From a bacterium (GTDB taxonomy: Bacteria > SZUA-182 > DTGQ01), in contig JAILZY010000098.1 in the NCBI GenBank assembly GCA_023512255.1, positions 1 through 12,384 on the forward strand: DNA of 12,384 nt, read 5' to 3'. Shown here piece after piece: positions 2,670-6,715 of this stretch; position 1 is the first letter of the stretch, and each line of letters begins with the position of its first letter. The notes below the pieces were generated by a model. It searched no databases. It was given only the letters and a program-made list of their open reading frames with translations, and was not told where the DNA came from. The translations under genes were made by a program, and so were the position numbers.

Positions 2670-3980
2670 TTGAAGATGCGCACGAATATTGTTCATATTG
2701 GTGCTGGAGAGCTTAGCTACGAGATACGGGGAATTGTAACCATCGCTCAGAAGCTGCAGCGGCTCGGAATCAAGGTCATCTGGGAAAATATAGGTGATCC
2801 AGTAGCCAAGGGAGAAACCATTCCTGACTGGATCAAAGCCATTGTCCATGAGATTGTCGAGCAGGATTGCTCGTATGCCTACTGTCCTACTAAAGGACTT
2901 GAGCAGACGAGAGAGTATATAGCGGCCTTAAATAACAGTCAGGGCGGAGCCCAGATCAGCGCCGACAATGTCCTTTTTTTCAATGGCACTGGAGATGCTA
3001 TCACCAAGATTTATAGCCTACTGAGACGGGAGGCGCGGGTCATCGGCCCTTCGCCCACCTACTCTACTCACTCTTCGGCTGAGGCTTCCCATGCAGGAAT
3101 GCCCCCTATCACCTACCGGCTCGATCCTGAAAATAGCTGGTATCCTGATATCGAGGACCTGCGGAATAAGATTAAGTACAACAGCGCCATCGCTGGCATG
3201 TTAATCATTAACCCGGATAATCCCACCGGTGCGGTGTATCCCAGAGAAATTCTTGAGGAAATGATCGGGCTGGCTAAAAAATATGACCTCTTCGTCATCT
3301 GTGATGAGATTTACCAAAATATCGTCTACAATAATACGGTAAACGTTCCTCTCTCCCAGGTGATTGGCGATGTCTGCGGCATATCCCTGAAGGGAATATC
3401 TAAGGAAATTCCCTGGCCTGGGGCCCGCTGTGGTTGGATAGAGGTTTACAACGCGGGGAAAGATCCCTGCTTTGACCGATACATCGAAAGCATTCTCAAT
3501 GCTAAAATGGTCGAGGTCTGCTCAACAACTCTGCCTCAGAAAGCTATCCCCAAGATTATGCAACATCCTAACTACCAAAGCTATCTGAGGGAAAAGAATT
3601 CCTTCTATGAGCGAGCCTCAAGCCTGGCTTATGAAATCCTCTCTCCTCTGAAAGATATTATCATTGTCAATAAAACCAACGGCGCTTTTTACATGAGCGT
3701 CGTTTTCCGTGAAGGCAAGCTAAAACCTAACCAGCGGCTTCCAATCGCCAACTCAATGGTTGAGGAATTTGTGGAAGGTCTGGTGCATAATGTGCCGCTC
3801 GATAAACGCTTTGCTTATTTCCTGTTGGCCTCAACGGGGATCTGCGTGGTTCCGCTTTCTTCCTTTTGTACCGATCTATTCGGCTTTCGGGTAACTCTTC
3901 TGGAAAAAGATCCTACTATCTTTCGCACTACCTTTGAAACCATTAGAGATAATATAGAGCGGTATGTTCAGTCGGCATGA
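2670..3980 (+). CDS. Pyridoxal-phosphate aminotransferase, class I/II
   Basis: Cytosolic fold-type I PLP enzyme of 436 aa that moves an amino group between an amino acid and a 2-oxo acid; the substrate cannot be read from sequence. Diagnostic motifs are NPDNPTG (residues 181-187), CDEIYQN with the pyridine-binding Asp212, the Schiff-base lysine in GISKEIPWPGARCGW (Lys245) and the arginine a few residues later. The C-terminal part (STGICVVPLSSF, GFRVTLLE) resembles alanine or valine-pyruvate type transaminases, which is only a hint. Start: TTG at 2670 with AAGGGAG 5 nt upstream; ATG at 2676 would shorten it by two residues. It stands alone, ending in a clear terminator 27 bp after the stop. 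Confidence 0.93.
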   Translation: MKMRTNIVHIGAGELSYEIRGIVTIAQKLQRLGIKVIWENIGDPVAKGETIPDWIKAIVHEIVEQDCSYAYCPTKGLEQTREYIAALNNSQGGAQISADNVLFFNGTGDAITKIYSLLRREARVIGPSPTYSTHSSAEASHAGMPPITYRLDPENSWYPDIEDLRNKIKYNSAIAGMLIINPDNPTGAVYPREILEEMIGLAKKYDLFVICDEIYQNIVYNNTVNVPLSQVIGDVCGISLKGISKEIPWPGARCGWIEVYNAGKDPCFDRYIESILNAKMVEVCSTTLPQKAIPKIMQHPNYQSYLREKNSFYERASSLAYEILSPLKDIIIVNKTNGAFYMSVVFREGKLKPNQRLPIANSMVEEFVEGLVHNVPLDKRFAYFLLASTGICVVPLSSFCTDLFGFRVTLLEKDPTIFRTTFETIRDNIERYVQSA

Positions 3981-4154: not shown

Positions 4155-4343
4155 ATGCGTTACCTTTGGGGAAACCTTATTGAAAAAATAAGCTTAAAAA
4201 CTGACCGATTAAAAATTATCGACCGCTCCACTTTCCATCTCCTTCGTTTGGAAAAAATTCCTCATGACAAGAAGATGTTTAGGGCGATTATGAATAAAAA
4301 CCGATACGATGTGGAAACCTATTCACTCCCCAATGGATGGTAA
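4155..4343 (+). CDS. Small basic hypothetical protein, 62 aa
   Basis: Not recognised. The ORF has a full AGGAGG Shine-Dalgarno at 4142-4147, 7 nt before the ATG at 4155; the ATG at 4149 would be too close. The product is soluble-looking, rich in Lys and Arg (motifs IEKISLKTDRLKIIDR and LEKIPHDKKMF), with no signal peptide, membrane segment, cysteine motif or repeat. A candidate operator/promoter lies 55 bp upstream. Small size and basic charge would suit a nucleic-acid-binding or toxin-antitoxin-type protein, but nothing shows this. It could still be a chance ORF; the ribosome site is the main support. Confidence 0.4.
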   Translation: MRYLWGNLIEKISLKTDRLKIIDRSTFHLLRLEKIPHDKKMFRAIMNKNRYDVETYSLPNGW

Positions 4344-4663: not shown

Positions 4664-4834
4664 TTTCCTGACTACCATGTGTCAAACCACCTCTTCCTTA
4701 GAGGTGGAATATTTCTTGAAATACTAACTCGTAAGATATTGCAAGTTAAGCTTGCGGTCAACAGACTGGCCATAGAATCTATGGGCCGCAGAAATTTTTA
4801 AAAAACAGCGCGCCCCGGGGTAGTCAGGAAAGGG
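4664..4834 (+). ncRNA. Candidate structured RNA: run of hairpins closed by a 13-bp stem
   Basis: TTTCCTGACTACC (4664-4676) pairs perfectly with GGTAGTCAGGAAA (4819-4831), enclosing about 140 nt. Inside are CCACCTCT/AGAGGTGG (4687-4707), TATTT/AAATA (4710-4723), GCAAG/CTTGC (4741-4755), and GGCCATAG with CTATGGGCC (4768-4787, one bulge). The density of local pairing is unusual for the window. It matches no riboswitch or ribozyme I know. The strand is assumed from the downstream small ORF; the pairing itself is strand-neutral. Confidence 0.35.
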
Positions 4835-4853
4835 CATTTAGGGAGAAAAACCG

Positions 4854-4958
4854 ATGTTTAGCGATACTACCCTTGGTATACTGGTGGCTCTATTTTCCGT
4901 AAGTATTTATACTGGTGTGCTACTGGCTGGCTATTTCGCTCGTAGTCTTAAAAATTAA
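4854..4958 (+). CDS. Small single-span membrane protein, 34 aa
   Basis: Not assigned to a family. The ATG has a GGGAG ribosome site (4841-4845) 8 nt upstream. The 34 residues begin MFSDTTLG, then a hydrophobic span (about residues 8-28, LGILVALFSVSIYTGVLLAG) and a basic end, ARSLKN. That pattern fits a single transmembrane helix with N-out, C-in topology. Length and form resemble small accessory subunits of membrane transporters or oxidases, but no such partner is adjacent. It lies wholly within the 19-bp inverted repeats, downstream of the hairpin cluster. A second Shine-Dalgarno follows directly after its stop. Confidence 0.5.
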   Translation: MFSDTTLGILVALFSVSIYTGVLLAGYFARSLKN

Positions 4959-4980
4959 GAAGGAGGGCTCTTAAGATTAG

Positions 4981-5055
4981 TTGATCAAACGATTTCCCTT
5001 ATGGTGGGTAATTTTTATGAACCTTGTCATAATTCTTATGAATAGTAGATCATGA
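4981..5055 (+). CDS. Possible 24-aa membrane peptide
   Basis: Weakly supported. A strong AGGAGG at 4961-4966 follows the 34-aa ORF, and the only start in range is the TTG at 4981, 14 nt away, which is long. The product (MIKRFPLWWVIFMNLVIILM and a short polar end) is basic at the N-terminus and hydrophobic after. It may instead be the stub of a longer downstream gene that has been lost, with the Shine-Dalgarno left behind. Confidence 0.25.
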   Translation: MIKRFPLWWVIFMNLVIILMNSRS

Positions 5056-5108
5056 ATAAATTGAAGAAGAAGCCCCTTTCCTGACTACCCCGCAAAGAGT
5101 TGGTAAAA

Positions 5109-5885
5109 TTAGCTGTCTTGAAACCGCTCAGGATGTATAGCCCGGCAACATTTGCACTTAAACCGAAAATCGAGGCCATGCTCAACAATTAGATTCCGAT
5201 CAAAGATAAAATCCCGCATCGAGCAATCACGGATAATCTGCCCGCCGACCATGATTATTACCCGCTGGCAGATCTGAAAGAGAATGGGAAGATCATGGCT
5301 AATAATGATCTTGGTGCAAGAGAGCGAATTGATCAAGTCAATGAGCACCTTTTCATTCTGTGGATCAAGATTGGCTGTCGGCTCATCCATAATCGTAACC
5401 TTTGGCTGCATGGCTAAGGTGGCGGCAATGGCTACCCGTTTTTTCTCGCCTCCGCTGAGGTGGTGGCTAGGTTTTTGAAGAAGGTGAGCAATGTTCATAG
5501 TCTGGGCTGCCTGGGCTACCCGCACCTTTATCTCATCCTTTGGCAGTTTCATATTGATCAGCCCAAACTCAAGTTCTTCCCTGACTGTAGGACAAAAGAG
5601 CTGATCGCTAGGGTCTTGAAACACTAGCCCGACAAGGTCTCGGATGCGAGGCAAGGTGCTTTGGGAAACCTCAATCCCGTCAATGTGGATCGAGCCAGCC
5701 TGGGGAAGTAGAATGCCGATTAGGTGCTTGGCTAGGGTCGATTTTCCTGCCCCATTGGGACCAACAATAGCTACGGATTCTCTCTCCTTGATGGTAAGGG
5801 TAATGCCATCCAGGGCTTTTTTTTGCTTTCGGCTGTAGGTAAAGGCTAGATCCTGGATCTTAATCAACGGCTTTTGCGTATCCAT
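5109..5885 (-). CDS. nikO: ECF nickel/cobalt transporter ATPase, second copy
   Basis: Cytoplasmic ATP-hydrolysing subunit of the energy-coupling module, 258 aa. It has Walker A GPNGAGKST (42-50), a Q-loop in VFQDPSDQLF, signature LSGGEKKR, Walker B VTIMDEPTANLDP and switch-His ISHD, all intact. The domain order and the QDPxxQLF motif are typical of CbiO/EcfA. It ends in a short tail, GLDFRFKCKCC, with Cys244, 246 and 247. It starts 8 nt after the stop of the other ATPase gene, with a modest ribosome site. Two different ATPases in one locus suggest a heterodimer like EcfA/EcfA'. Nickel rather than cobalt is inferred from the NikK/NikL-like neighbours. Confidence 0.93.
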   Translation of the reverse strand: MDTQKPLIKIQDLAFTYSRKQKKALDGITLTIKERESVAIVGPNGAGKSTLAKHLIGILLPQAGSIHIDGIEVSQSTLPRIRDLVGLVFQDPSDQLFCPTVREELEFGLINMKLPKDEIKVRVAQAAQTMNIAHLLQKPSHHLSGGEKKRVAIAATLAMQPKVTIMDEPTANLDPQNEKVLIDLINSLSCTKIIISHDLPILFQICQRVIIMVGGQIIRDCSMRDFIFDRNLIVEHGLDFRFKCKCCRAIHPERFQDS

Positions 5886-5893
5886 AGGCTTCT

Positions 5894-6715
5894 CTACGGA
5901 GGGCTTGGCTCAAAGCTCTCGGATATTTCCTGCTCCTCGGTAAGGTAGCGATGATGCTTAGGATCCTGATGACAGCAATCGCATCGGAAGGTAAAATCTA
6001 GCCCATTAGTTCGAAGCAGATTGACATCGGAAATAAACTCCTGCATAGAGAGAATCTGATCTATCTTCCCCTCTCTCATGATGACTACCTTCTGACAGGT
6101 CTGATAAAGGATCGGCAGATCGTGGCTAACCAGAATCATGGTCGTGGGAAGGTCGCGCAGGAGGCCAGTCATTATGGCTTCATTTTTCGGATCAAGGTTG
6201 CTAGTTGGCTCATCAAAGATCATGATCTTGGGCCGCATGGATAGCACTGTGGCCATAGCCGCCCTCTTTCGCTGGCCAAAGCTGAGGTCGTGAGGGGGGC
6301 GGTGCATAAATTCAAGAAGCCCCATCTTTTCCAGCGCCTCATGCACTCTTTGCTCTATAAGCCCAGGTTCCATGTCTAGGTTAATCGGGCCAAAGGCCAC
6401 ATCGTCGTAAAGGGTGGAGCAAAAGAGCTGGCTGTCTGGGTCTTGAAAGACCATACCTACTCGTGAGCGGATTTCCCTTAAATTTTCCTCAACCACCGGC
6501 AAACCATCGACTATAATCTCTCCTTCTTCTGGTCGGTAAAGACCATTGATATGCTTAATCAGCGTTGATTTCCCTGACCCGTTCTTTCCTACCAGAGCAA
6601 TCGACTCACCCTCAAAGACCGTAAGGTTTACCCCCCGTAAGGCCACTGTTCCGTCAGGATAGGTATAGTGGAGATTCCTTATGGTAATTATCGGTGTTTT
6701 CTTTTCCAAAATCAA
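5894..6715 (-). CDS. nikO: ECF nickel/cobalt transporter ATPase, first copy
   Basis: Partner ATPase of 273 aa. It has Walker A GKNGSGKST (43-51), VFQDPDSQLF, signature LSFGQRKR (LSFGQ is a common variant in this family), Walker B IMIFDEPTSNLDP and VSHD. The C-terminal extension holds GLDFTFRCDCCHQ (Cys245, 247, 248) with a nearby HH, then an acidic end. The same CxCC element is in the second ATPase although the tails otherwise differ. The start is taken as TTG at 6715-6713, overlapping the nikQ stop by 4 nt (translational coupling) with AGAGGA just upstream; a second TTG two codons on is possible. The product would bind the cytoplasmic coupling helices of NikQ. Confidence 0.93.
   Translation of the reverse strand: MILEKKTPIITIRNLHYTYPDGTVALRGVNLTVFEGESIALVGKNGSGKSTLIKHINGLYRPEEGEIIVDGLPVVEENLREIRSRVGMVFQDPDSQLFCSTLYDDVAFGPINLDMEPGLIEQRVHEALEKMGLLEFMHRPPHDLSFGQRKRAAMATVLSMRPKIMIFDEPTSNLDPKNEAIMTGLLRDLPTTMILVSHDLPILYQTCQKVVIMREGKIDQILSMQEFISDVNLLRTNGLDFTFRCDCCHQDPKHHRYLTEEQEISESFEPSPP

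What the first reader, a model, noticed from the sequence alone, without database searches (positions are those of the whole stretch)
4664..5092. Three-copy repeat with mutually exclusive pairing around tiny membrane ORFs
GGTAGTCAGGAAA at 4819-4831 is complementary to an upstream copy (4664-4676) and to a downstream copy (5077-5089, part of a 19-bp perfect arm). One RNA cannot form both stems at once, so this is the layout of a conformational switch: the upstream stem would leave the 34-aa ORF accessible, the downstream stem would enclose it. With uniform base use a chance 19-bp inverted match in 12 kb is expected far less than once.
Basis: partly seen in the sequence, partly recalled or inferred. 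Interest (0 to 1): 0.6.

Follow-up and report, generated by a model that had tools for sequence, protein, structure and literature searches.

The report
Tiny membrane-protein mRNA with end-to-end stem
A genus-specific gene for a 34-residue membrane peptide is flanked by a perfect 19-base inverted repeat whose pairing is kept in the only known sister species, which suggests its messenger RNA is closed end to end by a stem, as in some bacterial toxin messages, but no toxin activity or switching has been shown.

Summary
The repeat is real. A perfect 19-bp inverted repeat (4816-4834 / 5074-5092) flanks a 34-aa ORF (4854-4958), and a 13-nt copy of the right-arm sequence lies at 4664-4676. The 13-mer has three exact copies in the 3.83-Mb genome, all here. 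Simulated windows never gave a 19-bp match.

One homologous locus was found, in the same genus (G001) and in synteny. There the ORF is under strong purifying selection (dN 0.14, dS 1.29) and 19 contiguous pairs survive: one G-C to A-U double change, one G-C to G-U change, and a one-pair shift. So the long 5'UTR-3'UTR stem is supported, on + strand RNA. The support is modest: two sequences, chance about 0.02 for the pairs kept and about 0.1 for the double change.

The switch is not supported. The third copy has no convincing, covarying counterpart in G001. A perfectly conserved 21-nt block (4705-4725) suggests transcription starts downstream of it. Predicted access to the ribosome-binding site is nearly the same in both folds (0.53 against 0.49).

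Best reading: the mRNA of a tiny single-span membrane protein held closed by a 5'-3' long-distance stem. It resembles type I toxin mRNAs (hok, aapA; tisB/zorO), but membership is unproven.

The parts
4816..4834 (+). Left arm of the 19-bp inverted repeat, in the 5' leader of the 34-aa ORF, ending 5 nt before the SD
   Evidence: G001 counterpart L011:6421-6439 with one change (G4828 to A)
5074..5092 (+). Right arm, perfectly complementary to the left arm, between the 34-aa ORF and the cbiO stop codon
   Evidence: G001 counterpart L011:6666-6684 keeps pairing
4664..4676 (+). Third copy (TTTCCTGACTACC), 13 nt complementary to the left arm; not convincingly conserved in G001
4854..4958 (+). 34-aa ORF, MFSDTTLGILVALFSVSIYTGVLLAGYFARSLKN; single hydrophobic span; 74% identical to the 35-aa ORF of G001; dN 0.14, dS 1.29
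4840..4845 (+). SD-like AGGGAG, 8 nt before the ATG; the leader from the left arm to the ATG is conserved in G001
4705..4725 (+). TGGAATATTTCTTGAAATACT, identical in G001; contains the palindrome TATTTC-TT-GAAATA; probable promoter/operator region (inferred)
4984..5043 (+). Conserved 3' UTR blocks (TGATCAAACG, GGTAA-TTTTATGA, ATAATTCTTATGAAT) between the ORF and the right arm

Best explanation
The locus is a small gene, found so far in one genus of a poorly sampled bacterial phylum. It encodes a 34-35-residue single-span membrane protein (selection on the protein: shown). Its + strand mRNA carries a 19-bp duplex between the 5' leader just upstream of the SD and the 3' UTR (pairing conserved in two species: shown; formation in RNA: inferred). 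The most likely mode of action is that the full-length mRNA is locked end to end by this stem, which occupies the leader where a ribosome would stand by or bind and hinders 3' attack; translation rises when the 3' arm is missing, that is during transcription, after 3' processing, or in truncated transcripts, as in hok and aapA toxin mRNAs (inferred). The protein is most likely a regulated, potentially growth-inhibiting membrane peptide (inferred from size, hydrophobicity and mRNA layout only). The upstream third copy is probably a local remnant or a dispensable competitor, not a conserved switch arm.
For: 19-bp perfect repeat, 0 expected by chance. Arms and pairing kept in syntenic G001, with the probability of keeping as many pairs under independent change about 0.02. 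In G001 the repeat is the longest inverted repeat of the 1.4-kb region: 23 nt, 91%. Both changed pairs are G-C to G-U or A-U as read on the + strand; on the - strand one would be an A-C mismatch. ORF dN/dS about 0.11 and hydropathy up to 2.2. The locus folds better than shuffles: z -4.1 in the window, -2.0 in G001. Stem probability about 1.0 in full-length transcripts of both species. Literature: aapA3 and hok full-length mRNAs are inert through long-distance pairing relieved by 3' processing (PMC6733600; PMC4147584).
Against: Only two sequences exist and there is one true double change (P about 0.1). No transcript data. The stem does not cover the SD or start codon and hardly changes their predicted access, unlike aapA, where an anti-SD is in the stem. 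No terminator was found just after the right arm on the + strand. No antitoxin RNA gene was identified, and there is no family match in NCBIfam, Pfam, PHROGs or Rfam. Toxicity is untested.
Confidence: 0.45

Rival explanations
1. Trans-acting version: a separate + strand small RNA starts just before the right arm and uses its 19 nt to pair with the 5' leader of the membrane-peptide mRNA, as IstR-1/tisB or OrzO/zorO do; the copy at 4664-4676 would be a second such RNA.
For: 18-21 nt of complementarity to the toxin 5' UTR is the hallmark of these loci (PMC3919570, PMC4147584). A weak promoter-like match at 5024-5053 ends just before the right arm. A terminator-like hairpin follows the upstream copy at 4687-4707.
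Against: Promoter-like matches are near chance level and none is found in G001. Known loci of this type have a divergent antitoxin, which would give direct rather than inverted repeats. No terminator closely follows the right arm. The upstream copy is not conserved.
Confidence: 0.2
2. The arms are DNA sites, for example a pair of inverted binding sites of a regulator or nucleoid protein around the small gene.
For: The arm sequence itself is conserved in both species, and the same G-C to A-T change in both arms would also fit a shift in a protein's preferred site.
Against: No further good copies in the genome. Sites 240 bp apart in a leader and a 3' UTR are unusual. The changes tolerated are those that keep + strand RNA pairing, including a G-U pair.
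Confidence: 0.15
3. Full conformational switch: copy 1 and copy 3 compete for copy 2 and set expression of the ORF.
For: In the window, transcripts lacking the right arm pair copy 1 with copy 2 (probability about 1), and complete ones do not.
Against: Copy 1 is not conserved as a covarying partner in G001. Left-arm pairing with shuffled upstream sequence is common. RBS access does not change. The probable promoter block lies downstream of copy 1.
Confidence: 0.1
4. Relic of a mobile element (MITE-like): terminal inverted repeats around a captured small ORF.
For: Short element with perfect terminal repeats, not found at the corresponding places in family members G002 and G003.
Against: Single copy in each genome, same position in two species about 30% diverged, no clear target duplication, inner ORF under purifying selection, and no match in plasmids or viral contigs.
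Confidence: 0.08

Closest known systems
hok/sok and aapA/IsoA type I toxin mRNAs (5'-3' long-distance interaction, metastable folds)
   Same: Tiny hydrophobic single-span ORF; leader and 3' UTR complementary; a stable end-to-end stem predicted to be replaced by local pairing when the 3' end is missing.
   Different: The stem lies upstream of the SD and does not contain an anti-SD; no antisense RNA found; no sequence relation; toxicity unknown.
tisB/istR-1, zorO/orzO, shoB/ohsC type I loci
   Same: 18-21 nt of perfect complementarity to the 5' UTR of an mRNA for a peptide of about 30 aa.
   Different: There the complementary sequence lies in a divergent sRNA gene; here it lies downstream on the same strand, giving an inverted repeat.

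Membership tests
Type I toxin-antitoxin, hok/aapA style | Small (under 60 aa) hydrophobic membrane peptide | tested here: met
   34 aa, one hydrophobic span, conserved with dN/dS about 0.11
Type I toxin-antitoxin, hok/aapA style | 5'-3' long-distance pairing in the toxin mRNA | tested here: inconclusive
   19 pairs conserved in both species; formation and the transcript itself are predicted only
Type I toxin-antitoxin, hok/aapA style | The long-distance fold sequesters the SD or start | tested here: not met
   Mean unpaired probability of the RBS 0.53 with and 0.49 without the right arm
Type I toxin-antitoxin, any | Antisense RNA that represses the toxin | tested here: inconclusive
   Only weak promoter-like matches, not conserved; no Rfam match
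Type I toxin-antitoxin, any | Peptide inhibits growth when overproduced | not testable with these tools
   Needs an experiment
Known toxin or small-protein families (NCBIfam, Pfam, PHROGs) | Profile match of the 34-aa protein | tested here: not met
   0 families
MITE / insertion-sequence relic | Multiple copies with the same terminal repeats | tested here: not met
   Single copy

The most novel reading that the evidence does not exclude
A new family of type I toxin-like genes in a poorly sampled phylum, in which a single inverted repeat provides the silencing 'antitoxin' sequence in cis, in the mRNA's own 3' UTR, so that full-length message is silent and 3'-truncated message is active without a separate antisense gene.
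Probability: 0.12. Interest if true: 0.65.

Novelty: new variant of a known kind. Interest (0 to 1): 0.38.

Why it matters
If the stem controls a membrane peptide, this would add a self-silencing small-protein mRNA from a poorly sampled lineage to a class known mainly from E. coli and Helicobacter, with a layout (stem upstream of the SD, no separate antitoxin gene found) that separates the role of end-to-end pairing from SD masking. If it does not, the site is still a well-defined conserved small protein without a family.

Tried and rejected
Chance repeat: rejected. Dispersed repeat or transposon ends: rejected, single locus. Known RNA family: none. tRNA: none. Relatives of the 34-aa protein outside the genus: the best hits in 386 genomes are at noise level. 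Weak hits in six relatives at about 46-48% fall inside open frames of 583-600 codons; the one read (L015) is a V-type ATPase subunit A-like protein. The best outside hit (L046) and two others looked at gave no similar small membrane ORF. Viral contigs and plasmids: nothing. The one genome-contig scan, with the C-terminus of CbiO, returned only a contig of the same length as the family member G002's, which lacks the element. Terminator of the cbi operon on the - strand: the loop is far too long and one pair would be A-C in G001. The 21-nt block as a regulon motif: no other good copy in either genome.

Full report
Observation. The arms 4816-4834 and 5074-5092 are perfectly complementary over 19 bases with 239 bases between them. 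In 200 first-order Markov versions of the window, 16-mer inverted matches averaged 0.005 and 19-mers 0. The 13-mer GGTAGTCAGGAAA has exactly three copies in the 3.83-Mb genome, all within 430 bases here, and one-mismatch copies elsewhere are no more frequent than for the reversed control. The repeat is therefore neither chance nor part of a dispersed family.

Context. The window is a whole 12.4-kb contig. On the + strand lie a histidine kinase, an Slp-like lipoprotein, an aminotransferase (2670-3980), a conserved 62-aa ORF (4155-4343) and the 34-aa ORF (4854-4958). On the - strand, converging, is a cobalt/nickel-type ECF transporter operon whose last gene, cbiO, ends at 5109. The right arm lies between the 34-aa ORF and the cbiO stop.

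Homologues. Of the 9 genomes of the phylum that are held, only the same-genus genome G001 has the locus. It is in the same place, between the 62-aa gene and the cbiO end. G002, with an intact cbiO end, has unrelated genes there. The G003 contig stops about 220 bases beyond cbiO without it, and its copy of the 62-aa gene, still behind the aminotransferase, is not followed by a similar ORF inside such a repeat. No convincing homologue was found in 386 genomes, viral contigs or plasmids. The evidence for conservation is thus a two-species comparison.

The protein. The two ORFs are 74% identical. dN is 0.14 and dS 1.29, so the protein is real and constrained. It has one hydrophobic span (19-residue mean up to 2.2), a short polar N-terminus and a weakly basic C-terminus. 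No family model matches it.

The stem. In G001 the left arm has one change and the right arm four (4816-4835 and 5073-5092 compared), yet there are still 19 contiguous pairs: the outermost C-G is lost, an inner C-G is gained, one G-C has become A-U and one has become G-U. With the same number of changes placed independently, as many pairs survive in about 2% of trials and a two-sided compensatory change occurs in about 10%. This is support, not proof. The direction of the changes (G-U allowed) favours pairing in the + strand RNA. Full-length transcripts form the stem with probability about 1.0 in both species, and the region folds more stably than shuffles (z -4.1 and -2.0).

The switch. In the window, transcripts that end before the right arm pair the left arm with copy 1 with probability about 1, so mutually exclusive pairing is physically sensible if copy 1 is transcribed. 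In G001 the best upstream partner is a different 12-bp match with two G-U pairs; pairing at that level is matched by 58 of 120 shuffles, and the duplex energy by 56 of 500. It does not follow the left-arm change. A 21-nt block, TGGAATATTTCTTGAAATACT at 4705-4725, is the longest perfectly conserved stretch between the 62-aa gene and the leader. It has no other good copy in either genome and probably marks the promoter or operator, which would place copy 1 outside the mRNA (inference). Predicted access of the SD/start region is 0.53 with the right arm and 0.49 without it, so the claim that one fold exposes and the other closes the ORF is not borne out.

Mechanism. The most economical reading is an mRNA closed end to end by a leader-3' UTR stem around a tiny membrane protein. 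Two known kinds work in related ways. In hok and aapA mRNAs, long-distance pairing keeps the full-length message inert until 3' processing (PMC6733600; PMC4147584). In tisB/istR-1 and zorO/orzO, 18-21 nt of a separate RNA pair with the leader (PMC3919570; PMC4147584). The present locus shares size, hydrophobicity and complementarity with both. It fails the SD-masking test of the first kind and has no identified separate antitoxin gene as in the second, so it is not filed as a member of either. Toxicity is a hypothesis.

Verdict.

Noticed in passing
window 4155-4343 (+): A second small ORF (62 aa, basic, SD AGGAGG) conserved in G001 (70% identity, dN/dS about 0.15) and more weakly in G003 (45%), where it also follows the aminotransferase; no family match.
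   Followed up: partly
window 4705-4725: 21-nt block with a TATTTC-TT-GAAATA palindrome, identical in G001 with no other good copy in either genome; it has the GG-N10-G spacing of a sigma-54 site but GA in place of the -12 GC.
   Followed up: partly
window 5894-6715 and 5109-5885 (-): Two consecutive CbiO-like ATPases of the ECF operon, both with a cysteine-rich C-terminal tail (FRFKCKCCRAIHPERF / FTFRCDCCHQ), a possible metal-binding extension.
   Followed up: no
L011:5420-5698: G001 has an extra 92-aa ORF between the aminotransferase and the 62-aa ORF that the window lacks.
   Followed up: no
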